Shown: positions 21,589-49,745 of the stretch, one piece after another
Position numbering within the stretch: position 1 is the stretch's first letter
Layout of the letters: every line of letters begins with the position of its first letter
From: Clarkia xantiana subsp. parviflora
Lineage: Eukaryota > Streptophyta > Magnoliopsida > Myrtales > Onagraceae
NCBI GenBank assembly: GCA_036873135.1
Contig: JAPTYO010000015.1
Span: 1,262,839 to 1,326,838 of the forward strand
Reading direction: 5' to 3'
Length of the DNA: 64,000 nt
The notes under the pieces: model-generated
Seen by the model: the letters and a program-made list of their open reading frames with translations, nothing else
Databases searched by the model: none
Told to the model about the DNA's origin: nothing
Made by a program: the position numbers and the translations under genes

Positions 21589-21593
21589 GCGGG

Positions 21594-24791: not shown

Positions 24792-25640
24792 TGTTAGGTT
24801 ATGAGATCTAGGTCAACGGGGGGTCGGCTTTGATCTCACTCCTTACGGGGGATGTGTGTGATCCGATGTTCCTGAGCTGCTCTGCCTTAGCTTATCTTCT
24901 TCTTTCCTTCCTTCCTTCCTTTGCTTCTTCTCTCCTTCTACCCTGCAGAAGGGGCAATACCAGACATGGAGGGGGGGGTGGTACCTGGTGAACCCTCTCC
25001 GATGCCTAAGTCAGTATTTTTCTAGAGAGATAAAGCTAGAGAGGTGTCAGAGCTAAAATGTCCAAATGGCCAAGATTATTAAATGAGTTGTGAAGGTGGG
25101 GTATTTATAGGCAACGGTGTCATTAAGGTAGCTTAATGACATCGTTAACCTTTAAACACAATTAATTAACCTTTAAGCACATAATTAAGACCTTAGGATT
25201 CGGAGGAGGTAGGCGGAGTGGACCGAGCATGGGAGTCCGAAGGTGGTGTCGGGGCCCTTGGGGGGGGGAGAAATCCGACCTCCAAGGGTGGGGGTTGGGT
25301 GAGGGTACCCAACCCCTCCTAGGGAGGGTGGGGTTGGCCAACCCCATCCCTCCTAGGAGGGATCGGGTTGGCCGACCCGATCTCTCCTAGGAGAGATCGG
25401 GTTGGTCCACCCGATCTCCCCTAGGGGAGATCGGGGATCTCCCCTAGGGGAGGTCGGGTGTGGCCAGCCAACCTCACCTAGGTGAGTTCGTCTCTGCCGG
25501 ACGGACGCTTCGGCCCCGTCCGAGCCGTCGATGTTCTCGCGAAGTGTCCGGGTTGAAGTTTCGATTTGCAATCATAAATGGGACGATAAAAATACAACGG
25601 TTCGGAAGTCAACGGGTTCAAATTGGGCGTATATCTATCA
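24792..25640 (-). repeat. 3' LTR of element B (849 bp)
   Basis: On plus it starts TGTTAGGTTATGAGATC and ends ATATCTATCA. Minus-strand TATA box TATAAATAC at about 25101-25109. Next to it at 25641 is the reverse complement of the polypurine tract. Confidence 0.95.
25310..25470. repeat. Palindrome array in B 3' LTR
   Basis: Alternating palindromes centred on CCTAGG (GATCTCTCCTAGGAGAGATC type) and on GGCC or TGGTCCA (GGGTTGGCC...ACCC). Each unit of about 34 bp holds two centres. The array has fewer units than the 5' LTR of the same element. Confidence 0.9.
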
Positions 25641-26177
25641 CATGCCCCCGAGTCAACCAATGGCCTAACCCTTGATTGACTCTATTTTAGGATGGTATGA
25701 CACGCGCAATTTGAAACCGGGGTTTTACCTTCTTTGTCTGAATGCTTGCTTACCCATGGATGCGTGCCTCTGACTCTGCCCCCCTGTCTAATGAGATAGA
25801 GGAATTGTAAACGTCAGAGTAGCACGGACGTGGGCCTAGGCACGCGTCCGTCTGAGGTAGGAGTAATAAACTTATCTCTGCTACAGGTGTATATTCAAAA
25901 AATACACACTTGCACAGGGGTGTGATACGAATGCAATTAAATGACCTATGCTTCAAATTCGTGCCGGGATTTTATCTAAGTGAGGAAAAATTTAGTTTTG
26001 GCCAAAATTTTTCTAAGCATGGGATACTTGAAAATAAACCTTAGTGGATGTTAACTAGGGTGAGCGTAGACTTAACCGTGGTTAATAGGAACTAGTTTTT
26101 GAATCTTGTCCCTTGAAATTTTCCTCTCTAAAATTCAACGGTGTTGATTTGGCGACTCTAGAAAAACCCTAATCCTT
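25641..26177. other. B polypurine tract and upstream region of its antisense gene
   Basis: CATGCCCCCGAGTCAACC (25641 on) is the reverse complement of a G-rich polypurine tract next to the LTR. The rest aligns with 48500-48879 of C. No gene. Confidence 0.7.
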
Positions 26178-26195
26178 TGTATTATAAAAGGGAGA
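26178..26195 (+). promoter_or_regulatory. TATA box of the element B antisense gene
   Basis: TTGTATTATAAAAGGGAG lies upstream of a CT-rich leader (26215-26285) that ends in a possible donor, TTGAGGTATGCG. If this donor is used, an intron of about 640 bp spans the minisatellite and ends at CGGTCAG near 26927, just before the ATG at 26945. Confidence 0.55.
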
Positions 26196-26457
26196 AGTGA
26201 TTACCTCATTCTCATTGTCCTTTTCTCTTCTTTTCGACGGTGGGATTTCTGGTTGGGCTTGCTTCTCGAGGCACGCGTCGCATTGAGGTATGCGTTTTTC
26301 TTCTTGTGTAAGCATTGTTCTTGTGGAATTCGATCCTGTTTTTCTTTCAGTTGTTTCCTTACTTGTCTCGTTTCGATTTACGTGTCTTCATGATAATATA
26401 GTTCTGCTTGATTTGTCTTTCCTCCATCTTCTTGCTTTCCTACTTCCGTTTACTGGC

Positions 26458-26793
26458 GTGTGGGGTTTTCTACATCGGGATTATGGCTATCTCTGTTTGC
26501 CCCCTTGCCTCTGTCTGTTGGGCTGAGGGGTCTCTCCATGCTGGGGGTTATGACTATCTCTATTTGCCCCCTTGCCTCTGTCTGTTGGGCTGAGGGGTTT
26601 CTCCATGCTGGGGGTTATGACTATCTCCCCCTGCCCCCTGCCTCTGCCTGTTGGCTGGTGGGGTCTCCTTATGCTGGGGGTTATGACTATTTCCCCCTGC
26701 CCCCTGCCTTTGCCTGTTGGCTGGTGGGGTCTCCTTATGCTGGGGGTTATGACTATCTCCCCCTGCCCCCTGCCTCTGCCTGTTGGTTGGTGG
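26458..26793. repeat. 66-bp minisatellite in element B
   Basis: Five units of 66 bp, each with ATGCTGGGGGTTATGACTAT and CCCCTGCCTCTGCCTGTTGG. As 66 is divisible by three, several frames stay open across it; these are not called as genes. It occupies the place where C has the exon for the PF04195-like domain. Confidence 0.9.
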
Positions 26794-26944
26794 GGTTTTT
26801 CTTGCCGTCTTTCTATTCTTGTCTTTTGACTTTGTATCTATCATTTTAGGGAAATGAGTTCGTGTCTCTTGTCTATTGTTTGCTTTCTGTTTTTCTCGGA
26901 TTGAGCCTGTGTTTTTTCCGGTCAGCAGAACTTTCTGGTGATTG

Positions 26945-28008
26945 ATGAGGAGTAAGAGGCCAGTACGTGTGGGAGTGGTTACTTCCGGGGCCGGATCTTC
27001 GATTGCAAAAAGATCGGTTTTCTATGGTGCGGGGAGGTGTTCTCTAACTGGAGGTAAGGGTGGTGACGTTAGGGTGCCATCTTCTTTCTATATTGATGCC
27101 CCCCAATCGAAGGTCCGGGAGCCGTGTTTTCCTTCTTCTCTGTTTGGTGAGTTCTTGAGCAGCTGAGTTTCCTTAGTGTATATTGGTATTTACTCTGTGC
27201 TTTGTTATAGGTAGACTTCGTCTTCCGCGTCTGAGTCGGAAGGAGCTGTCTCGTCCACCTGTTGATGGAATTGTTGGGTCTGAGTGGGCGCCTTATTATG
27301 GGCGTGGGGCTCGTTTTGACAATCAATCTTCTTTGCAAACTCCTGAGGTTGGAGTTCGTGTTCTGCAGTCTGCTGTTCCTCCTGCTGATCGTGTGTCCCT
27401 CTCTAAAGGGTCGGATGCAACTTATGAGTTGGCTCGTGATGTGTTGGCTCGTTATGCTCCTGTAATGTTATTAACCGTTTTCTCCTTTGGCATACTTCTT
27501 CTTCATGCGTTATCCGTCTCATCTTTTATTTTTGTTGCAGGGTATGGCCGACCTTGTTAATTTATCCACCCTTGCTATTCATCTTGCTGAGGAGAGGAAG
27601 GTGTACGAGGACATTTGTGTCTCCCTTAACTCCAGCCTTATTAGCTATTTGGAGCATAGTCGTATTACTGATTTGCGGTGCCGAGACTTGGAGGGTCGCA
27701 TTGCTCTTCTCAATGAAGAGGTTGAGGCGTTGAAACAAAGGTCTTATCGTGATGAGACACTCCGGGCTGCTGAGTTAGTCTCTCTGGAGGAAATGTTTCG
27801 TATGGAGGCGAAGGAGTGTGCCATTGCTGAGTATAAGGCCTCTTCCGCTTATCGGGCTGCTATGGACGTTCGCTGCTCTGTGGCTAAACGTATTTCCTTT
27901 AAGGAGATTCTTGAGCGTATTCACATGATTGCTCCTGACTTTCCTTTCTCTCGTCTTGGTGATTTGTCAGACTTTGCACTTAAGCATATTGCGAAGATGA
28001 AGGAATAG
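26945..28008 (+). CDS. Antisense gene of element B, spliced, lacking the N-terminal domain
   Basis: Three exons with good splice sites. Exon 1 from ATG 26945 (SKRPVRVGVVTSGAGSS) to about 27145, donor FG|GTGAGTTC. Exon 2 from about 27211 (after TTGTTATAG) to about 27460 (RLSRKELSRPPVDGIVGSEW, LQTPEVGVRVLQSAV), donor CCTGTAATG. Exon 3 from about 27541 (after TTGTTGCAG) to the stop at 28006-28008, a coiled coil (LSTLAIHLAEERKVYEDICV, EMFRMEAKECAIAEYKASSA). It aligns with the C gene exons 5 and 6. The PF04195-like part is missing. The exons shown have no stops, so a shortened protein could be made; role unknown. Confidence 0.65.
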
Positions 28009-28416
28009 TACCCCTATTTATTGTGGTAGTCTCGTGTGTTTGTGAGTTGTGGTTGTCTTTAGAGTTTAAAACTCCACCTTTCTTAGTGTTGCCATCTTTG
28101 TCTGATACACTTGTTTATACTTGTTGTATATATGGCCGTGTGTTTATATCTCTTCTCATGATGTCTCCCTATGCCTTGTGTATGGCTCTTTGGGTATGGA
28201 ACCTTTCCTTTGTGTGTTTCCTTTACTTATCCTTCTTTCGTGCTTTCCTTCGTGTCTTACCTGCCATTTCATAAAGAAAAAACATTACTTGTTCTTCACA
28301 TTACTTTACTTAGAAATTTCTTTCTCATGGTATCCTTCTGAGCATGGTATCCTTCCAAGAATGGTGTGATGATCTCTTCTGGTACCCCTTACATGGTATA
28401 CGTTGTACTGTTAGAC
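28009..28416. other. 3' flank of the element B antisense gene
   Basis: T-rich, aligned with 44457-44838 of C; likely holds the 3' end of the antisense transcript. No gene. Confidence 0.5.
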
Positions 28417-29135
28417 CAAAGATACGCTCTTGGTGGGCGTCGAAATCTGTTCACGAGACAGGCTCTCGGACGGCACTTAACGTTTCACAGGATAGGCTCC
28501 CGGAGGGCACAGGTTAGTCCACCGATACGTTCTTGACGGGTGTCAAAATCTGTTCACGAGACAGGCTCTCGGACGGCACTTAACGTTTTACAGGATAGGC
28601 TCCCGGAGGGCTCAGGTTAGACCAAAGATACGCTCCTGGTAGGCGTCGAACTGGTAGTTTGAAATCTACCTCAAGATACGCTCTTGGGGGCGTCGAACTG
28701 GTAGTGTTTTTTCTACCTCAAGATACGCTCTTGGGGGCGTCGAATCTGGTAGGTTGCAAATCTACCTCAAGATACGCTCTTGGGGGCGTCGAAATCGTAG
28801 TTTTTGGAAACCACTCTCAAGATACGCTCTTGGTGCGTCGAATTCGTAGTGTAATAACTACTCTCAAGATACGCTCTTGGGGGCGTCGAAGGTCGTAGTA
28901 TGAACACTACTCTCAAGATACGCTCTTGGTGCGTCGAAGGTCGTAGTGTAATAACTACTCTCAAGATACGCTCTTGGGGGCGTCGAAGGTCGTAGTATGA
29001 ACACTACTCTCAAGATACGCTCTTGGGGGCGTCGAATATCGTAGTATGGAAACTACTCTCAAGATACGCTCTTGGGGGTGTCGAATGTCGTAGTATGAAA
29101 ACTACTCTCAAGATACGCTCTTGGGGGCGTCGAAC
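28417..29135. repeat. Tandem array of element B with hairpin units
   Basis: Two units of about 105-110 bp (GTTCACGAGACAGGCTCTCG and CAGGATAGGCTCCCGGAGGG) are followed by about eleven units of about 49 bp. Each short unit has two small inverted repeats: CAAGA-TACGC-TCTTG, and a variable one such as GTAGT-ATGAAC-ACTAC or GGTAG-TTTGAAAT-CTACC. The same array, inverted in the window, is in C at 43787-44456. Confidence 0.92.
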
Positions 29136-29432
29136 CTGTCATTGACTTGAAGTCATATCTGTGTAAGGATAACTTCGTGATTATACCACTACACTCACTG
29201 GAAAATACTTTTGAGTAACTTCTACTCCCTCAGGAGCATTCATGTTTTTGTACACTTGGGATGCCTTGGTGCACCAAGACATCCTTTGTAGGAATAAAAG
29301 ATAATTGTAGAGTTGGAGTAACTTCGTGAGTTCTCCTTCTCCAAAGTTGTTTTTTGAAAAGCTTGTAAAGCTGAAACATGCAAAATGTGAAATATGAAAC
29401 TAAGGATATGGTCTTTTGCTTGTGCTTTCTTC
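29136..29432 (-). other. 3' module of element B shared with C
   Basis: Read on minus, from CCATATCCTTAGTTTCATAT at about 29417 it aligns with C from 43510. It marks the exact point where the two elements stop sharing coding and start sharing 3' sequence. Confidence 0.8.
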
Positions 29433-32400
29433 TTATACGTAGTACTTCTTTAGGTGCTCTCCACTGAAGGTGTTTGTGGAGATATACCCCTCCCCATCTT
29501 CGAGGCGATAAGCGTTTATGTAGGGAACTGACGCTATCTTGTATGGTCCTTCCCACTTCGGAGATAATTTTCTGACTTGGTCTAAGTGTGAGAACTCATT
29601 CTTTCTTAGTACCAGTTCTACTACATGGAATTGTCTCTCTTTGACTTGGCGGTTGTAGTATCTTGCTGAGACAAGGCGCATTCGTGTCTGTGCTTCTTCT
29701 GAATTCCACCTTTTATCCTCCACCATGTCTAAATCTAAAAGTCTTGCTTTGTTGTTCTCATGCTCCTCAAAGTACTTGGTCCTCAGTGATTGTACAGCTA
29801 TTTCTGCTGGTGCCACCGCTTCAGTTCCGTACACTAGGCCAAATGGTGTTTCCCCTGTGGATATCTTTGGTGTTGTCCGCACCGCCCATAGAACATTTTC
29901 CAGCTCATCTACCCAACTTCCCTTGGTGGCGTGGAGTCGTTTCTTTAGGCCATCTAGCACTATCTTGTTTGCCGATTCTACCTGTCCGTTTGTCTGAGGG
30001 TGCTTTACTGATGCGAAACGGTGATCTATATTCAGTCTTTCGCAATACCACTGCAATTTCTTGCTCTTGAATTGTGGGCCATTGTCACTTATTATTGCTC
30101 TTGGCACCCCGTACCTCGAGACAATGTGAGATTGGATGAAATTGACGACTTGGTCGTCTGTTGTCTTCCCCATTGCCTTTGCTTCTATCCACTTGGAGAA
30201 GTAGTCTATTGCAACAATTATGCAAGTCTTCTGACCTTTTGTTTTTGGTAGGGGGCCTATCAAATCAATCCCCCATTGTGCGAAAGGCCAGGCTCCTGAG
30301 ATGGAGCTTAGCTTTGCTGGTGGGGCTGTTATATTTCTGGAGTAACTTTGGCAGTGATCACATTTTTGTACCAAGTCTGCTACTTCTTTGCTCAATGATG
30401 GCCAATAGTATCCTAGGTTGTAGACCTTTCGGCTTATTGACCGTGCTCCTTCATGGCATCCCGCATCTCCCTCATGGAGTTCTGCAAGCACCCTCTCTGT
30501 TTCTGGGTATGCTATGCATTTGAGGAAAGGTGTGGAGTATCCTTTCTTGTAGAGCTCATTGTCCATCACTGCGTAATTCCTAGCCATCCTTTCAATCTTG
30601 ACTGCTTCCACCTTATCTTTTGGGAGCTTTCCTTCCATGATGTATTGTCTCATTGGTGTCATCCAGACTTCTGCTTCATCTATTGCTAGAACCTCCATTT
30701 GTTCTATCACTGATTGCATTCTTTGCTCCACGAAGTGAACCTCTTTGCCTGCTTCTGTCCCTAAGGCTAGTTTACTTAAGGCGTCTGCCTCTTGGTTTTG
30801 TTCTCTTGGGACTGACTCAATGTCGAAGCTTTGGAAGCTCTTTATCAGGTCCTTGGCTTGCTGCAAGTATCTCTGCATGTTTTCGGACTTTGCAGTGTAG
30901 ATTCCTTTCACTTGATTGACAACTAGTTGAGAATCACACTTGACCCTTAAATGCTTTGCCCCTACTCCTTTGGCTATTCTCAGGCCAGTTATTAGTGCTT
31001 CGTACTCAGCCTCATTGTTTGTTGCCTTAAAGGTAAGTGCCATGGCATAGCGCATAGGTGCATCGCTGTTTGGTGGGTATAGTAAGAGGCCTGCACCTGA
31101 ACCTCCTCCGTTGGATGACCCATCAGTATGCATCTCCCATAGTTCTTCTGATTGTTTCTCCTGACTACTACTTGCCTCGCATGTAGTTTTGACTTCTTCC
31201 AAATCCTCGTCCGGATTAATTCCAGTGAATTCGGCGATAAAATCTGCTAGAGCCTGACCCTTTATGGCTGTTCTTGGGGCGAAATGAATGCGAAACTCAC
31301 TTAGCTCAATTGCCCATTTGGTCAGTCTTCCTGATGTGTCTGGTCTCTGTAGGAGGTGTTTCAATGGTTGGTCTGTGAGGACTGTTACTTCATGCCCATG
31401 AAAATACGGTCTCAACTTTCTTGCCGATATAATCAGTGCATAGAGGTACTTTTCTATTGGCAAGTAGTTGATCTCATACTTTGCCAGTGTTTTGCTTACG
31501 AAGTATACCGGCAATTGTGCAGCGTTTTCTTCTTTAATTAGCACTGAGCTTACTGCCACATTGCTCACGGAGATGTAGAGGTAGAGGGGCTCCCTTGGTG
31601 TAGGCTTTGCTAAGGGCGGTAGTGTCTTTAGGTGTTGCTTGAGTTGTTGGAAGGCTTCCTCACATCTCGGTGTCCATTCAAATTTCTTGTTTGCCCTTAG
31701 TACCTCAAAGAAGGGTAATGCCTTGTCTCCTATTTTGGATAGGAATCTGTTAAGGGCTGCCAATCTCCCGTTCAGTCGTTGAACCTCTTTGTGTTTCGTA
31801 GGTGACTGCATTTCTTCAATTGCTTGAAGTTTTTCGGGGTTTACCTCTATGCCTCGCTGGCTTACCATGAAACCTAAAAATTTCCCTGATTGCACCCCAA
31901 ATGCGCATTTTTTCGGATTTAGACGGACTTGGTACTGCCTCATCCTCTCGAATGTTGAGCGAAGGTTCTCCACATGGTCCTTCTTCTCTTTGGATTTGAC
32001 TATCATGTCGTCCACATATGCCTCCATTGTCCTCCCTATCATGTCTCCAAAGATTTTGTTGACCATTCTTTGATATGTTGCTCCAGCATTTATGAGTCCG
32101 AAAGGCATCACCGTGTAATGGTATATTTCACTATCAGCATAGAATGCTGTGTGAGGGGCGTCCTCAGGGGCCATTTTTATCTGGTTATATCCTGAGTATG
32201 CATCCATGAAGCTCATTAGTTGATGACCCGATGTTGCATCCACTAACTGATCTATTCTTGGTAGGGGATATGAGTCCTTAGGGCAGGCCTTGTTTAAGTC
32301 ACGATAGTCAATACACATTCTCCAACTTCCCCCTGGCTTCTTCACCAGTACCGGGTTTGCCACCCATGTCTGGAATCTGATTTCCTTGATGAACTTTGCC

Positions 32401-33359
32401 TTTAGCAGCTTTTCTACTTCTTCTTGAATAGCTATCTTTTTACTTCCTCCCATTGGTCTCACCTTCTGTGTTGTTGGTCGCGTTGCCGCGTCTATGTTGA
32501 GCCTGTGTGAGATCACATCTTCTGATATCCCTGGCATATCGCTCGGTGACCAGGCAAACAAATCCTTGTATTCCCTTAGTAAAGCGACTAAGTGGTTCTC
32601 CTCTTCCTGAGATAAGGCAGTCCCAATTTTAGCCTTCCTATTGGGTTCTTCTATGAGTATCTCTGTTAGTTCCTCCATGGGGGCTGGTCTTCCATGATTT
32701 TCTCTTGGGTCCTCATCTACTAGTAGGACCTCTGTTGTTTTCTTCCTCTTGCCTAGTGCAATCCTTGCACATTTCCTTGCTACCTTCTGGTTGCCTTTTA
32801 CTTCCCCTATTCCTTGGTCTGTGGGGAATTTCATTTTCTGATGTAGTGTTGATGGTACCATACCCCACTTGTTGATTGTAGTGGTACCTAGGATCCCATT
32901 GTACTCCTCCATTTCTTCTGTAATGAAGAATGGGACATCAATCTTTAGCTGCCTCTGCCCTGTGCCCAGTGTCACAGGTAGTGTGACTGCCCCCAGTGGG
33001 TATGTTGGCTCTCCTGAAAATCCTACCAAGGGGGAGTAAACCTGTTTTATGCTACTTGGCCTTACTCCTAGTATGTTGAGGACCTTCTTGCTAATGATGT
33101 TGGGTGAGCTTCCACTGTCTATTAGGATTCTCCCAATGTCCAAATCAGTGATCTTCATTGTTATGACCAGGGCATCCTTGTTGTCTGGTAACACATGCTC
33201 CATGTCTCTTCTTGAGAATTCTATTATGTCTTCTCTCTTTCCTTCTGTTTGTTTTTCTTTTGGCTTAGGAGCCCCTAACTCTGCCATATATGCTTCTCTG
33301 GCATTTGCTGACTCTCCTCCAGCTCCATAACCTCCATGGATGACATATACGCTTGCCAT
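29433..33359 (-). CDS. pol: Element B Pol polyprotein: protease, RT, RNase H x2, integrase (1308 aa)
   Basis: One uninterrupted frame from ATG at 33359, 51 bp inside the LTR edge. Protease: ILIDSGSSPNII with D81-S-G. RT about 320-500 with YVDD at 448-451. First RNase H about 590-710 without its usual Asp (LYLYISVSNVAVSSVL). Second RNase H about 740-865 with D746 (HTDGSS), E785, D809 and D859. Integrase about 950-1195 with H962, H969, C1000, C1003 and D1032, D1092, E1128. A C-terminal region with KLSPKWEGPYKI ends HLKKYYV. All catalytic residues of protease, RT, second RNase H and integrase are present. Gag is missing, so it must rely on Gag supplied in trans. Confidence 0.95.
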   Translation of the reverse strand: MASVYVIHGGYGAGGESANAREAYMAELGAPKPKEKQTEGKREDIIEFSRRDMEHVLPDNKDALVITMKITDLDIGRILIDSGSSPNIISKKVLNILGVRPSSIKQVYSPLVGFSGEPTYPLGAVTLPVTLGTGQRQLKIDVPFFITEEMEEYNGILGTTTINKWGMVPSTLHQKMKFPTDQGIGEVKGNQKVARKCARIALGKRKKTTEVLLVDEDPRENHGRPAPMEELTEILIEEPNRKAKIGTALSQEEENHLVALLREYKDLFAWSPSDMPGISEDVISHRLNIDAATRPTTQKVRPMGGSKKIAIQEEVEKLLKAKFIKEIRFQTWVANPVLVKKPGGSWRMCIDYRDLNKACPKDSYPLPRIDQLVDATSGHQLMSFMDAYSGYNQIKMAPEDAPHTAFYADSEIYHYTVMPFGLINAGATYQRMVNKIFGDMIGRTMEAYVDDMIVKSKEKKDHVENLRSTFERMRQYQVRLNPKKCAFGVQSGKFLGFMVSQRGIEVNPEKLQAIEEMQSPTKHKEVQRLNGRLAALNRFLSKIGDKALPFFEVLRANKKFEWTPRCEEAFQQLKQHLKTLPPLAKPTPREPLYLYISVSNVAVSSVLIKEENAAQLPVYFVSKTLAKYEINYLPIEKYLYALIISARKLRPYFHGHEVTVLTDQPLKHLLQRPDTSGRLTKWAIELSEFRIHFAPRTAIKGQALADFIAEFTGINPDEDLEEVKTTCEASSSQEKQSEELWEMHTDGSSNGGGSGAGLLLYPPNSDAPMRYAMALTFKATNNEAEYEALITGLRIAKGVGAKHLRVKCDSQLVVNQVKGIYTAKSENMQRYLQQAKDLIKSFQSFDIESVPREQNQEADALSKLALGTEAGKEVHFVEQRMQSVIEQMEVLAIDEAEVWMTPMRQYIMEGKLPKDKVEAVKIERMARNYAVMDNELYKKGYSTPFLKCIAYPETERVLAELHEGDAGCHEGARSISRKVYNLGYYWPSLSKEVADLVQKCDHCQSYSRNITAPPAKLSSISGAWPFAQWGIDLIGPLPKTKGQKTCIIVAIDYFSKWIEAKAMGKTTDDQVVNFIQSHIVSRYGVPRAIISDNGPQFKSKKLQWYCERLNIDHRFASVKHPQTNGQVESANKIVLDGLKKRLHATKGSWVDELENVLWAVRTTPKISTGETPFGLVYGTEAVAPAEIAVQSLRTKYFEEHENNKARLLDLDMVEDKRWNSEEAQTRMRLVSARYYNRQVKERQFHVVELVLRKNEFSHLDQVRKLSPKWEGPYKIASVPYINAYRLEDGEGYISTNTFSGEHLKKYYV

Positions 33360-33390
33360 CTTGCTAGTGATAGTTAGGCTTTCTGTCCGA

Positions 33391-33410
33391 AGCCCGCAGA
33401 CGGCGCCAAG
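33391..33410 (-). promoter_or_regulatory. Primer-binding site of element B
   Basis: Minus-strand CTTGGCGCCGTCTGCGGGCT directly inside the LTR. C has CTTGGCGCCATCTGTAGGCT at the same place. Confidence 0.85.
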
Positions 33411-34302
33411 TGTTAGGTTATGAGATCTAGGTCAACGGGGGGTCGGCTTTGATCTCACTCCTTACGGGGGATGTGTGTGATCCGATGTTCCTGAGCTGCT
33501 CTACCTTAGCTTATCTTCTTCTTTCCTTCCTTCCTTCCTTTGCTTCTTCTCTCCTTCTACCCTGCAGAAGGGGCAATACCAGACATGGAGGGGGGGTGGT
33601 GCTTGGTGAACCCTCTCCGATGCCTAAGTCAGTATTTTTCTAGAGAGATAAAGCTAGAGAGGTGTCAGAGCTAAAATGTCCAAATGGCCAAGATTATTAA
33701 ATGAGTTGTGAAGGTGGGGTATTTATAGGCAACGGTGTCATTAAGGTAGCTTAATGACATCGTTAACCTTTAAACACAATTAATTAACCTTTAAGCACAT
33801 AATTAAGACCTTAGGATTCGGAGGAGGTAGGCGGAGTGGACCCAGCATGGGAGTCCGAAGGTGGTGTCGGGGCCCTTGGGGGGGGAGAAATCCGACCTCC
33901 AAGGGTGGGGGTTGGGTGAGGGTACCCAACCCCTCCTAGGGAGGGTGGGGTTGGCCAACCCCATCCCTCCTAGGAGGGATCGGGTAGGCCGACCCGATCT
34001 CTCCTAGGAGAGATCGGGTTGGCCGACCCGATCTCTCCTAGGAGAGATCGGGTTGGCCAACCCGATCTCTCCTAGGAGAGATCGGGTTGGTCCACCCGAT
34101 CTCCCCTAGGGGAGGTCGGGTGTGGCCACCCAACCTCACCTAGGTGAGTTCGTCTCTGCCGGACGGACGCTTCGGCCCCGTCCGAGCCGTCGATGTTCTC
34201 GCGAAGTGTCCGGGTTGAAGTTTCGATTTGCAATCATAAATGGGACGATAAAAATACAACGGTTCGGAAGTCAACGGGTTCAAATTGGGCGTATATCCAT
34301 CA
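33411..34302 (-). repeat. 5' LTR of element B (892 bp)
   Basis: Same sequence as 24792-25640 with few substitutions and extra palindromic units. Minus TATA box at about 33719-33727. It drives the gag-less pol transcript. Confidence 0.95.
33925..34140. repeat. Palindrome array in B 5' LTR
   Basis: Same CCTAGG- and GGCC-centred palindromes as at 25310-25470 with at least one more unit; this accounts for most of the 43-bp length difference between the LTRs. Confidence 0.9.
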
Positions 34303-34307
34303 GTATG

Positions 34308-40222: not shown

Positions 40223-40242
40223 CTTGGCGCCATCTGTAGGCT
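40223..40242 (+). promoter_or_regulatory. Primer-binding site of element C
   Basis: CTTGGCGCCATCTGTAGGCT follows the LTR CA end. The next 31 bp to the ATG resemble the B leader (CTTCGG.CAGAAAGCCT). Confidence 0.85.
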
Positions 40243-40273
40243 TCGGGCAGAAAGCCTGGCTATTACACGAGCT

Positions 40274-40852: not shown

Positions 40853-43522
40853 GCAAGACCTCCAAGGAGGCAAGACTTCCATGAAACACCCCAGCAGGCG
40901 TACCAAGGGTACACCTATAGTCCATACCAGTATGGACAAGGGAACCCAGTAAGCCCAGTCTACAACTACAGTGGGTATCAGAGGGATTATACTCCGGCGC
41001 AGGTGATGATCACCCCGGAGGAGATAGAAGCCATGATAACCCGGAAATTGAATGAGTCAAAGAAACCCAGCCTGCATTGTCTAAGTGACAAGACAAACCA
41101 CCCTTTCACAAGGGAACTGGAGATGAACAGGGTGCCAGACTCCCTGCACACAGTGCAAATTGCAAAGTACAATGGGAAGGGAGACCCCCTAGAGCATATC
41201 CAACAGCATGAGGCCTCCCTATTTGGGAGGACCACTGATGAAAGGTACAAGGCACTCTTGTTCCCAAACACCCTATCAGGGGTGGCCTCACATTGGTTCT
41301 TCAGTCTACCCTCTGAAAGCATCCACTCATGGGAGCAGCTAAAAGCTAAGTTTCTGCAGAGATACCCAGGGGAGAGGAAACTCCTCAAGGGAACAGACTC
41401 CATTGATGATGTGAAACAAGAATACGATGAATCCCTGGCCAGCTACTATACTAGGTTCAACCAGAATATTGCAGACATCCAGGGAGACATCACCGAAGGG
41501 GAGATTATACGAGCCTTCATCAGAAACTTAGGTCGCTTTGGGTCAACATTGGCTGAAAAGATGGCCAAAAAGCCAGCAAGCACCTTGGAGGAGCTTGCAG
41601 GAAGAGTTAAAACGCATATCGACCTTGAAAGGCACAGGGCAAGCAAGAAGGCCAAAATCCAGGCAGCCAAGGAGGATAATCAAAAGCCAAACAAAGGCAA
41701 GCCACCCCAGGCACCGCAGCATGCAAGGCAGCAGGAATGGCGTCCGCCACAGCAAAGAAACCAAATGGGTGAACCCTTAAAGGCTAGAGAAATAAACGTC
41801 ATTAAGTTCATCCCACTGAACGCCACTCCAGCCACCGTACTTAGAGAGATGCGGAACCAAAAGCTTTGGTCACCCCCTGCAAGGTGGAGAGCCCCAATGG
41901 TGGGAAATCACAAGGATAGATGGTGTGACAACCATGAGGCTTATGGTCACGACACAAATGAATGCTTTAGCCTAAAGCTAAGCAGAAACAACATCGTCCA
42001 GAGAGGAGAACTGAAGCAATTCATAGACCATGGGGGCAACAGTATGCAACTAGGGCCATCACAGAAAGACAAGGGCAAGGGAAAGATAGACTACAACCCT
42101 CCACCCAACAAAAAAGGAGTCATAAATATGATACATGGAGGAGTAGCATCGGGTGGCCCAACTGCTAATGCAAGAGAGGTCTATGCATCCAAGCTAAGCT
42201 CAGTGCCAAGGTGGAGAAAAAGGCCAAGAGAAGGGGAAGAAGTGAAGATCGAGTTCTCGGAGAAGGACAAGAGCCACATCGTCTTTCCACATGACGATGC
42301 TCTAGTTATTACTTTAGATATTGACAATTTTGATGTAAAGAGAATTTTGGTGGATGGGGGCAGCTCAGCTGACCTCCTAAGCTTGAGAGTGTTAGAGGAG
42401 ATAGGGAAAACCAAAGCAGACATCAAACCGGTCAACTTCCCTCTAGTTGGCTTCTCAGGGGCAACAAGTTTCCCCCTGGGAATGATAACCCTACCAGTAA
42501 CCATGGGCCAAGGATGGACCCAGCTGAAGGTAAATGTCAATTTCTTGGTGGTTGAAAGCCTGGGAGCCTACAATGGGATCCTAGGAAGGACAACCATAAA
42601 CCCATATGAAATAGTGCCATCCACTGTTCACAAGAAGCTGAAGTACATCACGGAGAACGGGGTTGGAGAGGTCCTGGGTGATCAACGCACTGCAAGGCAA
42701 TGCTACGTCAACTCAATGAGACGTGGATCACACGGGACAGACACAGTGGCTGTGGTCATGGTAGGAGCCAACCAGGATAGAAGAAGGAGGGGAGAGAGAC
42801 AAAGGCAAGGAAGGAGGAGGAGTGGAGTGACACTCCGTCTGAGCAGGCAGTTTTTTCAAACAGTGCCTACAAAGAGACACAGGAGCAAGGCTGTGAAGGT
42901 GACATCCATACCTTGGCAGCCAGACACCATAATAGGGAACAGAACAAGGAACTCCATCCTAAAAGGCTTCCGCTACATAGATGATATCAAGCAAATGCCG
43001 CGGGAGTCTATATCAAGCTATTTCCAGAGATTCTTCAATTATGGTGCCAACATGGACATCACAAGGGGAGAAGCAGTAAGGGCATTCATTAGAAACATGC
43101 ATCCAAACTCATTCGGGACCTATGGAGGGCTCTATGAGATGGTCATGACGAGCACAATGAGAGAGCTCAAGGCAAGGCTGGACAAGGCATTTGCACAGGA
43201 AGCGGAGCAGTTGGATGAAGTTCCGATGAGAGGAAGAGAAATGGACACATTGGGAAGAAGTGTCAATTTCACATTCACACCCCTCACACTCAGCATAGAA
43301 GAAATTTTCCACAAGCACCTCAAGCAAGAGCTACCAACATGCAGGGAGGAAGGCAAGGCCTTCCTAGGAAGAGATGCACAGGGTTGGTGTGAGTACCATG
43401 GGACCTGGGGGCATCAAACCAACAACTGCATGGTGTTGAAGGTGGAAGTGGAAGAAATAATTTACAATGGAGACTTCAAGGAGTATGTGGCAACAGACAC
43501 AGTGACCACCCCATATCCTTAG
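40853..43522 (+). CDS. gag: Element C Gag-protease-Gag' polyprotein
   Basis: Open without a stop to TAG 43520-43522; a 839-codon stretch starts at 41003. Counting from 41003: capsid-type gag about 45-215 (AKYNGKGDPLEHIQQHE, GVASHWFFSLPSE, FLQRYPGERKLLKG); knuckle C308-H311-H316-C321; VIHG-type motif about 374; protease about 430-570 with D451-G-G (RILVDGGSSADLL). Then, instead of RT, a basic linker (about 590-635) and a second gag-like domain (about 650-735; YIDDIKQMPRESISSYFQRF against SIDDVKQEYDESLASYYTRF in the first), and a second knuckle C796-H799-H804-C809. No RT, RNase H or integrase. It could supply Gag and protease to partner elements. Confidence 0.92.
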   Translation, partial: ARPPRRQDFHETPQQAYQGYTYSPYQYGQGNPVSPVYNYSGYQRDYTPAQVMITPEEIEAMITRKLNESKKPSLHCLSDKTNHPFTRELEMNRVPDSLHTVQIAKYNGKGDPLEHIQQHEASLFGRTTDERYKALLFPNTLSGVASHWFFSLPSESIHSWEQLKAKFLQRYPGERKLLKGTDSIDDVKQEYDESLASYYTRFNQNIADIQGDITEGEIIRAFIRNLGRFGSTLAEKMAKKPASTLEELAGRVKTHIDLERHRASKKAKIQAAKEDNQKPNKGKPPQAPQHARQQEWRPPQQRNQMGEPLKAREINVIKFIPLNATPATVLREMRNQKLWSPPARWRAPMVGNHKDRWCDNHEAYGHDTNECFSLKLSRNNIVQRGELKQFIDHGGNSMQLGPSQKDKGKGKIDYNPPPNKKGVINMIHGGVASGGPTANAREVYASKLSSVPRWRKRPREGEEVKIEFSEKDKSHIVFPHDDALVITLDIDNFDVKRILVDGGSSADLLSLRVLEEIGKTKADIKPVNFPLVGFSGATSFPLGMITLPVTMGQGWTQLKVNVNFLVVESLGAYNGILGRTTINPYEIVPSTVHKKLKYITENGVGEVLGDQRTARQCYVNSMRRGSHGTDTVAVVMVGANQDRRRRGERQRQGRRRSGVTLRLSRQFFQTVPTKRHRSKAVKVTSIPWQPDTIIGNRTRNSILKGFRYIDDIKQMPRESISSYFQRFFNYGANMDITRGEAVRAFIRNMHPNSFGTYGGLYEMVMTSTMRELKARLDKAFAQEAEQLDEVPMRGREMDTLGRSVNFTFTPLTLSIEEIFHKHLKQELPTCREEGKAFLGRDAQGWCEYHGTWGHQTNNCMVLKVEVEEIIYNGDFKEYVATDTVTTPYP

Positions 43523-43786
43523 TTTCATATTTAGCATTTTGCATGTTTCAGCATTACAAGCTTTTCAAAAAACAACTTTTGAGAAGGAGAACTCACGAAG
43601 TTACTCCAACTCTACAACTATCTTTTATTCCTACAAAGGATGTCTTGGTGCACCAAGGCATCCCAAGTGTACAAAAACATGAATGCTCCTAAGGGAGTAG
43701 TAGTTACTCAAAAGTATTTTCCAGTGAATGTAGTGGTATAGTCACGAAGTTATCCTTACACAGACATGACTTCAAGTCAATGACAG
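43523..43786 (+). other. 3' module of element C shared with B
   Basis: From CCATATCCTTAGTTTCATAT (about 43510) it aligns with the minus strand of 29432-29136. The gag' stop codon lies in the first bases of the shared module. Confidence 0.8.
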
Positions 43787-44456
43787 GTTCGACGCCCCCA
43801 AGAGCGTATCTTGAGAGTAGTTCTTATACTACGACATTCGACGCCCCCAAGAGCGTATCTTGAGAGTAGTTTTCATACTACGACATTCGACGCCCCCAAG
43901 AGCGTATCTTGAGAGTAGTGTTCATACTACGACCTTCGACGCCCCCAAGAGCGTATCTTGAGAGTAGTTATTACACTACGAATTCGACGCACCAAGAGCG
44001 TATCTTGAGAGTGGTTTCCAAAAACTACGAACTTCGACGCCCCCAGGAGCGTATCTTGAGAGTAGTGTTCATACTACGACCTTCGACGCCCCCAAGAGCG
44101 TATCTTGAGAGTAGTTATTACACTACGAATTCGACGCACCAAGAGCGTATCTTGAGAGTGGTTTCCAAAAACTACGAATTCGACGCCCCCAGGAGCGTAT
44201 CTTGAGGTAGATTTGCAACCTACAAGATTCGACGCCCCCAAGAGCGTATCTTGAGGTAGAAAAAACACTACCAGTTCGACGCCCCCAAGAGCGTATCTTG
44301 AGGTAGATTTCAAACTACCAGTTCGACGCCCACCAGGAGCGTATCTTTGGTCTAACCTGAGCCATCCGGGAGCCTATCCTGTGAAACGTTAAGTGCCGTC
44401 CGAGAGCCTGTCTCGTGAACAGATTTCGACGCCCACCAAGAGCGTATCTTTGGTCT
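43787..44456. repeat. Tandem array of element C with hairpin units
   Basis: About twelve units of about 49 bp (TTCGACGCCCCCAAGAGCGT, ATCTTGAGAGTAGT) and one longer unit with CCGGGAGCCTATCCTGTGAA and CGAGAGCCTGTCTCGTGAAC. The counterpart of 28417-29135. Confidence 0.92.
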
Positions 44457-44838
44457 AACAGTACAACGTATACCGTGTAAGGGGTATCAGAAGAGATCAT
44501 CACACCATGCTCAGAAGGATACCGTGAGAAAGAAATTTCTAAGTAAAGTAATGTGAAGAACAAGTAATGTTTTTTCTTTATGAAATGGCAGGTATGACAT
44601 GAAGGAAAACACGAAAGAAAGACAAGTAAAGGAAACACCAAGAGAAGAGCCCATAACCAAAGGGATATATACAAAAGCATGAGAAGCACTAATGTAAAGG
44701 CAAGCGAACCACGTAGTCAACAGCACAATACGGCAAAAGAAAGTAACAACAAACACCACCACAATTTCAAAAGACACTCAACCCATTAAAGGGGAGAAGG
44801 AGTGTAGTTATATACAAGGATAACATGAGATAAACACA
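44457..44838. other. 3' flank of the element C antisense gene
   Basis: A-rich on plus, aligned with 28009-28416. No gene. Confidence 0.5.
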
Positions 44839-47233
44839 TCAGTCGGAACCTTCGGGGGAGTCACCCTCACCCCCTGAAGCTGAACCACCGGCAGAGATGG
44901 ATGATGAGGAGGAATCTGAGGTACCAATCTCCACTGGTGTAGCATCCACCTGGGCAGGGGCAGGCTCGTCTGCAACAGCAGCCTGACCCCTCAAAACAGC
45001 CATGTAACCAGTGGCATATGGCCCGAAGTCACCAAGGTCACCAACTGGGAACTGAGGATCAATGCGGAAAATGTGATCAACCAGATACTCACCGAACTGG
45101 TTCATCTCCTGAGTGAGACGCGCGCTATAATCGGCAGTGAAGGTAGAGGAGGCCTTGTACTCAGACACCGCGACAGTCCTCTCCTCCGCCCGACACTTAG
45201 CCTCCAACTTCCGCAACTCCTCAGAATGGAGCGACGCTGCAACCTCAGCTTCCCGGCGCAAACTGCCCACAGTAGTCTCAAGCAAGGACACCTGGTCCCG
45301 GAGCTCCTGCATCCTCAAATCAGATAATCGCGCCTTCTCAGCAGCAGTGGCGACCTCCGCCTTGAGAGAGACCTGGCTGTCCTCAAGGGTCTTCCTCTCG
45401 TCAGATAACTCGAGCACGAGCGAGGACATGTTCACCATGTCAGACATACCCTAACAATTCAAACAAGGGATGAGTAACCGAAAGATAGCCATTATGAAAG
45501 TAATAAGAGGTAAGCAAGGAACAACTCACAGGTGCATAACGAGAAAGTACCCCCTGAACAAAGCGCCGAGTCTCCCCAGGAGACTTGGGCGGAGCAACAC
45601 GATCGCCAGGGGGGATGGCGCCGCGGAGTACGCGGACACCAACCTCAGGAGTCCGCAAAGAGGAGGTGCTATCGAGGTGGAACTCCTTCAGACCAGCGAA
45701 AGGAGTCCACTCAGACCCAATAACATCTTCATCAGTAAGACGGGCGAAATCCTTCCGACTTAAAGTCAGAGGCCCACCTACACAAGCAAAGCAAGTCAAA
45801 GGAGAATATAAACATAGAAGGATCAGCAACAAGGTAGAGATCATACCTGAGGACCGTGCCCTCGGCTGGGGGGCAGGGGAACCACCACCAGCAGGTCGCT
45901 TCCCTTTGTCAGCCAGGGAAGGCACCTCTTCGACCACCATCTCCTTATCACGAGATAGGGTCGGAGGACGAGCAGTAGGCGAAGCAGGATCCACGGCCTT
46001 CTTTCTCTTAGCAGCCGAGGCCCCGGCCTCAGAATCAGATATCCGCGGCTTGGACTTGGAAGGTCCAGAATCTCTGCCAACGGAGACGACCCTCTCAGTC
46101 ACCAAGAGGGAGCGCCCTAGCAATGTAAGAAAAGCAAGATAAGGAAAACACAGATTATACCATAAAGAAGCAAATAGGAGAAAGCATACCAGAGGCCCCA
46201 GCCTTCTTCCCAGGCAGGGGGGATTTCTTCAGAGCAGAACCAGAAGGAGCCTTCCTCTTGCTCAGATCAACAGGGGCTCCCTGCACGTTATAGGTTTTTC
46301 CATAAACCAACCTACAAAGGAAGAGCAGAAGGTAAATAAAGATGGAAAGACCAAGTGACATACCGAACCCCCGGAGTCAGGAGTCAAACTGATCCCGGCC
46401 TCGTAAAGATCCGTCTCAGTCACTAAGGACACGGGGCATTATGACCGAGTCCTGTTGCTCTCGTGAATGATCTTCATAGTCTCTAAATCAACTGAAGAGA
46501 ACTCTCCGAAAGCAGGCCAACCATCGGACCGATCCTCATTCAAGACCGACCAAGTGACGTATCGATCCGTAATGAAGAAGTAATGCTTAGCCCAGTGACT
46601 GGCCGAATTGTCACTCCGGGCCACGAAACGGAGGGAGGTATCCCACTCGATCCCACTCAACCCGAAATCAGTAAATCGGGGATCCTTGAAGGTCGGATGG
46701 CGAGTTACGAAACTCGCAAACCCCACCTTCGTCTGGTACTGGAACCGGTAGAAGCATCGGAATAGAACGAGGGAGTACCTCCAGGAGTACCAATGGCACA
46801 ATACCCGGAAGCCCACCCAGACACGAAGGGCACTGGGGGCAAGGTTCACAGGAGAAATCCTGAAGAACCTGCTCAACTCTATAAGCTCGTCACAGTAAGG
46901 CAACCTCAGCCCGAATCGGATCTGGGAGGGGTACACGGCGACCTTCCCTATAGGAGGCTCCGTCACCGTCTCGCGAGTATTCCCCAAGGAGGGGAGAAAA
47001 GGATACAGAGGCTCATCTAGGGGACAGATATCTCCTAGGGTAACATGCTCATTGTAATCGGACCTAGTGAGATGGTTCTCCGACAAGATAGCGAAACCTA
47101 AGGCAAAGGTAGCAGGAAATCCCAAAGTACGAATCAAATTTCGACTAACACCCCAACGAAGGTCACGACACTAAGCTAGCAATAGGAAAGGAAGTAATGC
47201 GACCAAAAAGGAAGAGAAAAGGAACTCACTCAT
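44839..47233 (-). pseudogene. Antisense spliced gene of element C, complete but for one in-frame stop
   Basis: Six exons on minus. ATGA (47233) | GTGAGT; exon 2 from about 47171 (after GCTAGCTTAG) with the PF04195-type domain (QIRFGLRLPYCDELIELSRF, SALRVWVGFRVLCHWYSW) to about 46364, containing TAA at 46441-46439 in an otherwise continuous frame; exon 3 about 46311-46191 (NVQGAPVDLSKRKAPSGSAL); exon 4 about 46105-45849, Lys/Ser-rich; exon 5 about 45779-45533 (LTLSRKDFARLTDEDVIGSE, RTPEVGVRVLRGAIP); exon 6 about 45452-44839, a coiled coil with Ser/Gly-rich end. Introns have GT...AG ends. Function unknown. The stop may truncate the product to the N-terminal domain. Confidence 0.75.
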
Positions 47234-48868
47234 CCTTCGGAGGATGCGACGCCTCTGTAGAGTCTGTGTGCGCGGACACCACCAGGAATATAGCACCTGC
47301 CACGACACGACAAATATCAAGACAAGAAAAATTTCCGAAGAACCGGAAATACTCCGACACCCGACCAACGACAACAATCAAAGATCCAAAGACACCCAGC
47401 AAAGATAGTCAACATGAGCCAAGGACACCACAACAACCAAGTTGGATAATTTTATCCGAGCCTAAGGTCGGGTTTTGGAAAAAATTACCGTTATACCCTC
47501 CAACAAAGATTAACGCACCAACGGCGGTACAACATCAAATTCAAAACCGGGATAGCACAATCGGACAAGAAACCATATCCGGACGACCGGAAAACATTTT
47601 TTCCCAAATCCACAACTACCAACGGCTATCCACGGCAATCCCACGTTCAATCAAATTTCAGCAATCAAGCATCGGCAATCAAATATCAACGATTCAAAAA
47701 TCGACACTTTATACGGTAACGAAAAGGAAAAGAGCGGACCTTCGGAAAACCCGACCCGATGTGATAAACGGGTCCGGAATTCGAATTTGGGCGTTGCCGG
47801 AAATCAGGTCCTCGCCGGAGATCGGACCCCGTCGTCGCCGGAACCGTTTTCAGTCGCCCCACCATCGCCGGAAGCCGCCGAGGGTCACGCCGGAGCTGCT
47901 TGCTATCGCCGTCGACAACCCCCGCTGGGTTTGGTGCCGTCGTCGTCAGAGGTGAGTTCGCCGTCGACCACCGCCGTCCGTCCAATGCCGCGCCGCCGTC
48001 GCCAATCAAACCTCCAGTGGACTCCCCTGCCGTCGACCGCCTGTGTCGGACAAGGCTCCACCTCCGTCAGCTGCTCCTTCGCGCCGCTGCTGGTCCGTCC
48101 CACCTCCACGCCGGCGTCTCGAGTCGCCAATCCACTGGCCGGCTCTGTCCCGTGCTGGTGGTCTCCTCCCGCCGGAGTTGCTGGCCGGAATTTCGGGTCC
48201 CTTGCCGGAATTCTGGCCGGCCTTAACCTTGGGGGTGCTCTCAAACTTTTCTTGCTCTCCAAGGGTGAGTGAAAAGGGAAGATGGTGGCTATGGTGACTC
48301 CCTAAGGTATTTTTCTAACTCTCTTTTATGTTAAAAGGATGATAGGGTTTTTTAGAGGGTTTTAATCACCACCATCCATCTATCTTTAAATAAAATTTAA
48401 GGGCCAAGGAAAAACCATCATTTTTATCCCTTTCAACTATGGCTAAGTATATCTCCATACTTAGAAGAACTATCAAGTTAGTTTTATTTTTGAGCATTCC
48501 ATACTTAGGAAATTTTTTAGCCAAAATTAAATTTTTCCTCACTTAGATAGAATCCCGGCACGAATTTGAAGCATAAGTCACTTAGTTGCATTCGTATTGC
48601 ATCCTTGTAAGAGTATGCATTTTTTAAGTATACGCCGGTAGCAAAGATAGATTTATTGCTCCCGCCTCAGACGGACGCATGCTTAGGCATACGTCCGTGC
48701 TACTCTAACGTTTACAACTCCTCTATCTTATAAGACAGGGGGCAGAGTCGAAGACACACATCCATGGGTAAGCTGACACTCAGATGAAAGGTAGAAACCC
48801 CGGTTTCAAATTGCGCGTATCATACCATCCTGAAATAGAGTCAATCAAGGGTTAGGCCATTGGTTGAC
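47234..48868. other. Upstream region of the element C antisense gene
   Basis: Contains a minus-strand leader exon candidate (acceptor GTGGCAG near 47297), a GC-rich block (47780-48250), then A/T-rich sequence that aligns with 25660-26160 of B. Open frames on plus (47197-47955 and others) are not supported by homology. No definite TATA box was picked. Confidence 0.5.
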
Positions 48869-48879
48869 TCGGGGGCATG
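48869..48879 (+). promoter_or_regulatory. Polypurine tract of element C
   Basis: CTCGGGGGCATG abuts the 3' LTR; the same tract is in B (reverse complement at 25641). It primes plus-strand synthesis. Confidence 0.75.
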
Positions 48880-49745
48880 TGATGGATATACGCCCAATTT
48901 GAACCCGTTGACTTCCAAACCGTTGTATTTTTATCGTCCCATTACCGATTGTAAATCGAAACTTCAACCCGAACACTTCACGAGAACATCAACGGCTCGG
49001 ACGGGGCCGAAGCGCCCGTCCGGCCAAGGTAAACTCACCTAGGTGAGGTTGGGTGGCCACACCCGACCTCCCCTAGGAGAGATCGGGTCAGCCAACCCGA
49101 TCTCTCCTAGGGGAGATCGGGTGAGCCAACCCGATCTCTCCTAGGAGAGATCGGGTCGGCCAACCCGATCTCTCCTAGGAGGGATGGGGTTGGCCAACCC
49201 CATCCCCCTTAGGGGGGGTTGGGTGCCCTCACCCAACCCCTACCCTTGGGGGTCGGATTTCTCCCCCCCCCCCCAAGGGCCCCTGCGCCATTTTCGGACA
49301 CCCACACCCGGTTCACGTCGCCTACCTTCTCCGTATCCTAAGGTCTTAATTGTACGCTTAAAGGTTAATTAATTGTGTTTAAAGGTTAACGATGTCATTA
49401 AGCCACCTTAATGACACCGTTGCCTATAAATACCCCACCTTCACAACTCATTTGATCATCTTGGCAATTTGGATCATTTTGCTCTGACATCTCTCTAGTT
49501 TATCTCCCTAAGAAGAATACTGACTTAGGCATCGGAGAGGGTTCACCAGGCACCACCCCCCCCCCCTCCGTGTCTGGTACTGCCCCTTCTGCAGGGTAGA
49601 AGGAGAGAAGAGGCAAAGGAAGGAAGGAAGGAAGGAAGAAGATAGGCTAAGACAGGGCAACTCAGAAATACCGGATCACACACATCCCCAGTAAGGAGCG
49701 AGATCAAAACCGACCATCCGTTGACCTAGATCTCATAACCTAACA
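48880..49745 (+). repeat. 3' LTR of element C (866 bp)
   Basis: Nearly identical to 39398-40222, with about 41 bp more, mainly one extra palindromic unit and longer C runs. TATA box at about 49425. Ends CATAACCTAACA before TSD GGTAT. Confidence 0.95.
49035..49240. repeat. Palindrome array in C 3' LTR
   Basis: As at 39555-39735 with one extra CCTAGG/GGCC unit (GATCTCTCCTAGGAGAGATC, then GGGTCGGCCAACCC). Confidence 0.9.

What the first reader, a model, noticed from the sequence alone, without database searches (positions are those of the whole stretch)
24792..49745. Two young elements with complementary halves: B carries only pol, C carries only gag-protease-gag'
Seen: B and C share LTR type, primer site, a 51-bp leader with the ATG at the same position, a 3' module that starts at the same CCATATCCTTAGTTTCATAT junction, the hairpin array and the antisense gene. 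Between leader and 3' module B has an intact 1308-codon pol and C a gag-protease-gag' frame. B lacks all of gag; C lacks RT, RNase H and integrase. Both have perfect TSDs and near-identical LTR pairs, so both moved recently, although neither encodes everything needed. Inference: Gag from C-type and Pol from B-type copies complement each other, a split two-component retrotransposon. Known precedents are partial (gag-less BARE-2 using BARE-1 Gag; gag-only TR-GAG elements). A clean exchange of cassettes between the same flanks, with both partners side by side, would go beyond them.
Basis: partly seen in the sequence, partly recalled or inferred. Interest (0 to 1): 0.92.

Follow-up and report, generated by a model that had tools for sequence, protein, structure and literature searches.

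The report
Two-part plant jumping gene system
Two plant jumping genes side by side carry complementary halves of the usual gene set, and copies around them suggest an old partnership in which one kind makes the particle and the other the enzymes; a similar pair is known from maize.

Summary
B (24792-34302, minus strand) encodes protease-RT-RNaseH-integrase 51 nt after its LTR and no gag. C (39398-49745) encodes gag-protease-gag' and no RT or integrase. Both have perfect TSDs and young LTR pairs (98.7%, 99.6%). They are not deletion derivatives of one recent parent: proteases are 48.5% identical, LTRs ~90%, the start of the 3' module 96.6%. In 294 kb around the window I classified six gag-less elements (B,D,E,K,R,U) and six gag-PR-gag' elements (C,F,H,M,S,T). 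None of the 12 has both gag and RT, though one decayed mosaic (V) mixes pieces of both kinds. Pol-type and gag-type proteases form sister clades with mirrored branching. LTRs group by partner rather than by coding class. dN/dS is 0.08-0.13 for pol and 0.08-0.14 for gag-PR-gag'. This favours an old two-component retrotransposon whose partners exchange cis sequences. The idea is in print (maize Cinful/Zeon; Retand clusters lacking GAG or RH-INT); new here are the age and pairing of the split and a conserved second gag. A genome-wide Pol-type count, absence of a helper, and particle sharing are not shown.

The parts
33411..34302 (-). B 5' LTR
   Evidence: TSD CATAC
33360..33410 (-). B primer binding site and 51-nt leader; no gag between LTR and protease
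29433..33359 (-). B ORF: protease, RT, RNase H, second RNase H, integrase (1308 aa)
25641..29421 (-). B 3' module: shared junction, repeat array, antisense gene without recognisable PF04195 part, 66-bp minisatellite, PPT
24792..25640 (-). B 3' LTR
39398..40222 (+). C 5' LTR
   Evidence: TSD GGTAT
40223..40273 (+). C primer binding site and 51-nt leader
40274..42115 (+). C gag (N-terminal region with one in-frame stop at 40850-40852, capsid PF03732, CX2HX4HX4C knuckle)
42116..42817 (+). C protease domain (approximate bounds)
42818..43519 (+). C gag': second gag piece (C-terminal capsid part plus zinc knuckle), in frame after the protease
   Evidence: present in 38 of 39 other genome copies examined
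43511..48879 (+). C 3' module: junction, array, antisense gene with PF04195, PPT
44839..47137 (-). C antisense gene (PF04195 Transposase_28 in 46439-47137)
48880..49745 (+). C 3' LTR
37871..57520 (-). E, Pol-type: pol 57520-54446 (H inserted at its upper end), 3' module (C nested in it), 3' LTR 38528-37871; its gag-less 5' end lies right of the window
21589..37870 (-). F, gag-type: gag' 37870-37203, 3' module (B nested in it), part of 3' LTR 21758-21589; its gag-PR lies right of the window
57521..59477 (-). H, gag-type: end of 3' module and 3' LTR 58134-57521; gag-PR-gag' lies right of the window
59478..61113 (+). D, Pol-type: 5' LTR 59478-60188, leader, gag-less PR start (190 nt from LTR end to protease match); pol and 3' LTR lie right of the window

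Best explanation
B and C belong to a two-component Retand-like Ty3/gypsy system. An ancestral gag-PR-pol element split into a P lineage (LTR-PR-RT-RH-IN-3' module, no gag) and a G lineage (LTR-gag-PR-gag'-3' module, no RT or integrase). Shown: both structures occur in several LTR families; the proteases of each class group together; both frames are under purifying selection; B and C share LTR and 3' module sequences that are younger than the split of their coding parts. Inferred: G RNA is translated into Gag (and gag'), which forms particles that package both RNAs; P RNA is translated into Pol, which enters the same particle and reverse-transcribes and integrates both; template switching between the co-packaged RNAs keeps LTRs and 3' modules alike. 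Also inferred, and weaker: gag', a capsid C-terminal plus zinc-knuckle piece, helps recruit P RNA or Pol, because Pol is no longer fused to Gag.
For: Six P and six G elements in 294 kb, 0 of 12 with gag and RT; RT was seen in five of the six P elements (not in U). Of the 39 genome copies besides C listed, 38 have gag' directly before the module, 0 have pol there and 1 has neither; 15 of 18 checked have LTR end, leader and gag start 3.0-3.3 kb upstream. Protease tree ((A,A2),((B,(D,E)),(C,(F,H)))): P clade 100/99, P+G 97/96, G clade 87/68. B, K, R, U and E share the same gag-less start, MxxxYVIHxG, 51-58 nt after the LTR. B-C protease 48.5% with pS 0.80 against LTR ~90%. Start of 3' module: B-C 96.6% identical, but B-K 13.8% and C-M 11.8% divergent. 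LTR: K-M 95-96%, B-C about 89%, B-K and C-M about 84-85%. dN/dS at most 0.25 for every domain in all 9 pairs.
Against: No RNA, protein or particle data. Conventional gag-pol relatives (A-type, 8 in 294 kb) live in the same genome and could act as helpers. The genome search with B's module did not complete (24 tries, last), so P-type copies were counted only in 294 kb of one contig. One decayed element with H-type LTRs, V, holds gag pieces and P-like protease pieces together, without RT, so the classes are not perfectly separate. Both classes keep a protease, which a pure division of labour does not require. The G clade has modest support (87/68), and with more rows the LTR order among K, M and S is unresolved. 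C itself has a stop in gag.
Confidence: 0.72

Rival explanations
1. Both classes are non-autonomous passengers of a third, autonomous element: either the A-type gag-pol Retand elements or an unseen full-length copy with B/C LTRs. P and G contribute proteins but are not sufficient together, as proposed for wheat Wilma with Sabrina and WHAM.
For: Eight A-type gag-pol elements, several of them decayed, in the same 294 kb. A-type Pol is 62% identical to B over the whole frame. An autonomous partner is present in the published wheat complexes (PMC9744471, PMC11302176, passages).
Against: A's primer-site extension and leader differ from those of B and C, and A's LTRs gave no match to C's LTR, so shared cis recognition is less likely. 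P pol and G gag are under strong purifying selection, so their own products are used. LTRs are shared between P and G elements.
Confidence: 0.2
2. B and C are independent recent deletion derivatives of one full-length gag-PR-pol element with the same LTR.
For: Shared LTR, leader, junction and array.
Against: The protease that both kept is only 48.5% identical, with synonymous sites saturated, while the flanks are ~90% identical. The same two structures occur in other LTR families (E, F, D, H) and in other B/C-family copies (K, M, R, S, T).
Confidence: 0.03
3. P elements are mobilised by any Gag in the cell, and the G elements are Gag-making relatives that borrow Pol from P; there is no obligate pairing, and shared LTRs reflect chance template switching.
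For: Gag-less elements with a full-length Gag donor are described for BARE-2 (PMC9744471, passage). The mosaic V shows that P and G pieces do get mixed.
Against: Pairing of LTRs and 3' module starts and mirrored protease trees of P and G are more than occasional switching predicts, though only two pairs (B/C, E/F) and one K with M/S grouping were seen.
Confidence: 0.05

Closest known systems
Maize Cinful / Zeon (RLG00001), Retand lineage
   Same: One type codes for the polyprotein, the other for GAG; treated as subtypes of one family because LTR signals are homogenised (PMC8547701, passages; its ref. 25, Sanz-Alferez 2003, not seen). The same paper reports 25 maize LTR families with GAG and POL in separate copies and under 1% with both.
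   Different: The passages that I saw give no depth of split, paired phylogenies or second gag. The plant here is unnamed; its nearest listed database Pol proteins are only about 45% identical.
Alopecurus myosuroides Retand clusters 7a, 7b, 7c, 7i, 7j (no GAG; AP, RH, INT present) and 2, 3b (GAG, AP; no RH, INT)
   Same: Both structural halves, antisense PF04195 and recent activity in one genome (PMC11963269, abstract, passages, first part of Results with Table 1; the text counts one cluster without RH and INT, the table shows two).
   Different: Not discussed there as partners in what I read; a second gag is not mentioned there; LTRs 454-577 bp against 825-892 bp here.
Wheat Sabrina_SA and WHAM (GAG-Pro only) with Wilma
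   Same: GAG-protease elements without RT and INT that co-evolve with another family (PMC9744471, passages).
   Different: The partner Wilma is autonomous; here the Pol partner lacks gag.
Einkorn Cereba / Quinta
   Same: GAG-only partner; divergent gag between over 90% identical flanks, explained by template switching (PMC11302176, passages).
   Different: Cereba is autonomous.
BARE-1 / BARE-2
   Same: An element without working GAG thought to use GAG from a relative (PMC9744471 passage; title of Tanskanen 2007 in a reference list).
   Different: Copia elements; that BARE-1 encodes everything is recalled.

Membership tests
Retand/Tat lineage of Ty3/gypsy | Second RNase H between RNase H and integrase (Ogre and Retand; PMC6317226 passage) | tested here: met
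   B: RNase H 562-689, RVT_3 745-864, integrase zinc-binding domain from 954 and core from 1025
Retand/Tat lineage of Ty3/gypsy | Antisense ORF with PF04195 (TRP28) between pol and 3' LTR | tested here: met
   C: PF04195 27.4 bits, cut-off 26.2. E, F and A carry regions similar to that C protein. B itself: not met
Retand/Tat lineage of Ty3/gypsy | RT clusters with named Retand references | not tested
   Trees used unnamed or plant database proteins, not curated Retand references
Cinful/Zeon-type two-component family | Pol and gag on separate copies that share LTRs | tested here: met
   B and C, and K with M, share LTR subfamilies; 0 of 12 elements with both gag and RT
Cinful/Zeon-type two-component family | Under 1% of all genome copies carry both genes | tested here: inconclusive
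   39 C-like copies examined at the 3' junction, 0 with pol there; no genome-wide list of B-like copies was obtained
Autonomous/non-autonomous pair (BARE-2, TR-GAG, Quinta type; TR-GAG is recalled) | One partner encodes all genes | tested here: inconclusive
   No gag-plus-RT copy among 12 elements with these LTRs in 294 kb; the rest of the 695.6-Mb genome was not censused for one; A-type gag-pol copies have other LTRs

The most novel reading that the evidence does not exclude
An ancient obligate bipartite retrotransposon: one gag/pol split before the diversification of at least two LTR families, P and G lineages diverging in step ever since, no autonomous copy anywhere in the genome, and a G-specific second gag that replaces the lost Gag-Pol fusion as the means of bringing Pol or P RNA into the particle.
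Probability: 0.3. Interest if true: 0.85.

Novelty: new variant of a known kind. Interest (0 to 1): 0.64.

Why it matters
If right, selfish DNA can be stably multipartite, like a segmented virus, with two RNAs that depend on each other and that selection keeps as a pair. It gives a system in which co-packaging, template switching and conflict between partners can be read from trees: LTRs follow the partner while coding parts follow the class. It also warns that surveys which remove polyproteins with doubled domains or unexpected order as mispredictions (PMC6317226, passage) would remove elements built like C.

Tried and rejected
Rejected: B and C as deletion derivatives of one recent parent (protease 48.5% identical against ~90% flanks). 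Rejected: gag' as a recent internal copy of C's gag: it is 29% identical to C gag, and C's and F's gag' knuckle regions group together at 97/90 (24 rows, bootstrap not settled; against this, F's piece is by plain identity slightly closer to database protein P0019, 40.5%, than to C's gag', 38.3%). Rejected: the separate integrase figure, which was cut out of frame; one search gives the corrected values. Corrected: I first read E and F as a tandem sharing an LTR; the right flank showed that E is inserted in F, and H in E.

Led nowhere: the database search with gag' gave 0 hits from 792 candidates at E<=10; the best listed relatives of B pol are about 45% (120 of 4316 shown, candidates capped) and the best of C gag 30% (18 hits); the viral-contig scan gave none; PF03732 on gag' alone is below cut-off (14 bits, cut-off 24.1); F's 3' LTR could not be traced beyond the A insertion. 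Six of the nine comparisons (B-E, B-A, B-C, D-C, C-A, knuckle piece of C-F) have saturated dS, so I quote no ratio for them. Insertion ages at 1.3e-8 (B 0.5, C 0.14 My) rest on a rate used for maize (PMC5311732, passage) and are rough.

Left out of the P/G tally in 294 kb: V (survey 98196-107927, H-type LTRs, gag start, knuckle and gag' pieces mixed with P-like protease pieces, no RT); J (125678-135463, C-like gag start and a weak protease match only); N (165238-169844, no coding match); LTR pieces and an integrase end piece at 66.5-71.2 kb; lone LTR matches at -30.7 kb and 239.8-241.3 kb other than T's. U is counted as P for its gag-less start, but its protease is in pieces and no RT was seen. 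R showed no matching TSD (its LTR start was not aligned), and T's was not determined. Trees used part of the rows: one search kept 50 of 128 protease rows, one search used 14 chosen outgroup proteins.
Full report
Observation. B and C are two young LTR elements with perfect target-site duplications and LTR pairs of 98.7% and 99.6%. B encodes one 1308-aa frame with protease, RT, RNase H, a second RNase H and integrase; C encodes gag, protease and a second gag piece, with one in-frame stop at 40850-40852. Their LTRs are ~90% identical. The 51-nt leaders are 74.5% identical, and homology resumes abruptly at CCATATCCTTAG with 96.6% over 290 bp. The antisense gene region falls to 53.6% and the last 420 bp before the 3' LTR rise to 84%. 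So the two elements are mosaics: similar cis sequences, deeply different coding parts.

Not recent deletions. The only coding domain that both keep, the protease, is 48.5% identical in protein, with synonymous sites saturated (pS 0.80). A common parent within the ~10% divergence of the LTRs is excluded. The flanks must have been exchanged after the coding parts separated.

More elements. Comparison inside the window and with 80 kb on its right resolved a nest. F holds E, E holds H, and H holds D; B sits in F's 3' module and C in E's. E has its LTR end, 58 nt of leader and then a protease start MANTYVIHSG, like B's MASVYVIHGG. D has 190 nt between LTR end and the protease match. F and H have gag-PR-gag', both with broken frames. 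TSDs are perfect for H (GCACT) and D (GTAAT) and 4 of 5 for E. Extending to 294 kb of contiguous DNA added K, R and U (gag-less) and M, S and T (gag-PR-gag'), with perfect TSDs for K (TTAAC), M (GGCAT) and S (TATGC); R showed none and T's was not determined. K has an internal deletion and one stop; U keeps only protease pieces and no RT. Tally: 6 P, 6 G, 0 of 12 with both gag and RT. Eight A-type elements of other LTR families, several decayed, have conventional gag-pol order.

Not in the tally. V, a decayed element between H-type LTRs, starts like a gag-type element and then holds P-like protease pieces, a gag knuckle and gag' pieces, and no RT. It is either a P/G recombinant or nested debris; it shows that the classes are not perfectly separate, and I found no RT in it. 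J and N have B/C-type LTRs but only remnants or no coding match.

Genome. The assembly has 695.6 Mb in 59 contigs. A search with C's 3' module start scored 40 of 2274 candidates. Of the 39 other than C, 38 have gag' directly upstream, none has pol there, one has neither (19 of 20; 19 of 19). Of 18 tested further upstream, 15 have the LTR end, leader and gag start at 3.0-3.3 kb; 3 have nothing at that distance. These are the copies nearest to C, so the count says little about P copies; the matching search with B's module did not complete (24 tries, last).

Trees. Protease: ((A,A2),((B,(D,E)),(C,(F,H)))), with P clade 100/99, G clade 87/68, P+G 97/96. A 50-row tree without E, F and H gives the same order for A, B, C and D. 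RNase H region: A outside (B,(D,E)), 86/80 for the P group. The zinc-knuckle parts of C's and F's gag' group at 97/90, with the bootstrap not settled. So one split, old enough to precede the LTR families seen here, is the simplest reading, though the G clade is only moderately supported.

Partners share cis sequences. LTR identities over the last ~536 columns: K (P) with M (G) 95-96%, B (P) with C (G) about 89%, but K-B 84.5-84.9% and M-C 84.0-84.5%. With R, S and T added, B, R, C and N stay together (85/87), while the order among K, M and S is not resolved. At the start of the 3' module B-C differ by 3.4%, but B-K by 13.8% and C-M by 11.8%. E and F share 4147 bp of 3' module at 69.5% and 507 bp of LTR at 74%. 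D and H share little (350 bp of module, 183 bp of LTR), so I do not claim them as a pair.

Selection. P pol: dN/dS 0.12, 0.08 and 0.13 for B-K, B-R and K-R. G frame: 0.08-0.14 over six pairs of C, M, S and T; by domain gag 0.04-0.16, PR 0.04-0.08, gag' 0.12-0.25. Among 18 very young gag' copies (C and 17 of the 20; two had stops and one an internal deletion, and these were dropped; 153 pairs) pN/pS is 0.60, as expected when recent neutral changes dominate. Both halves, gag' included, have therefore been kept for function.

Mechanism. Shown: separation, conservation, shared cis sequences. Inferred: Gag from G and Pol from P meet in one particle that carries both RNAs; template switching there homogenises the flanks, as argued for Quinta (PMC11302176, passages). 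How an unfused Pol enters the particle is open. That gag' helps is my guess, based on its zinc knuckle and on its presence in the six G elements (C, F, H, M, S, T).

Known work. PMC8547701 (passages) describes maize Cinful (polyprotein) and Zeon (GAG) as approaching a mutualism, and 25 families with GAG and POL in separate copies. PMC11963269 (abstract, passages, first part of Results) lists gag-less and GAG+AP Retand clusters in Alopecurus. PMC9744471, PMC11302176, PMC2410132, PMC6317226 and PMC5311732 were read in passages only. A search for a second or duplicated gag (listing only, 13 papers) showed no title on such a plant element; that is one search of an open-access library. So this is a variant of a known kind with unusually clear evidence of age, pairing and selection.

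Noticed in passing
9719-21588: A: complete element with LTRs 9719-10478 and 20817-21588 (96% identical), TSD GCGGG, conventional gag-pol order but a frameshift in gag and stops in pol; inserted in F's 3' LTR.
   Followed up: partly
26500-26800: B has a minisatellite of about 66 bp in its 3' module and no recognisable PF04195 part, unlike C, E and F.
   Followed up: partly
28685-29172 and 43779-44316: Array of ~49-nt units with the hairpin core CAAGA-GCGTA-TCTTG (read by eye); a related stretch (80% over 52 bp) lies in F's 3' module. A possible packaging or stability signal; not tested.
   Followed up: no
L012-L013, survey coordinates 98196-107927: V: decayed element between H-type LTRs that mixes gag, gag' and P-like protease pieces, without RT.
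   Followed up: partly
L078-L079, survey coordinates 165238-169844: N: short element with LTRs about 97% identical to C's and no coding match, a possible third, non-coding class.
   Followed up: no
L015-L016, survey coordinates 125678-135463: J: LTRs 99.5% identical over the compared part, C-like gag start and array, a weak protease match, but no recognisable capsid, RT or gag'.
   Followed up: partly
L022: A C-family copy in which the gag N-terminal part is joined to the end of gag', an internal deletion.
   Followed up: no
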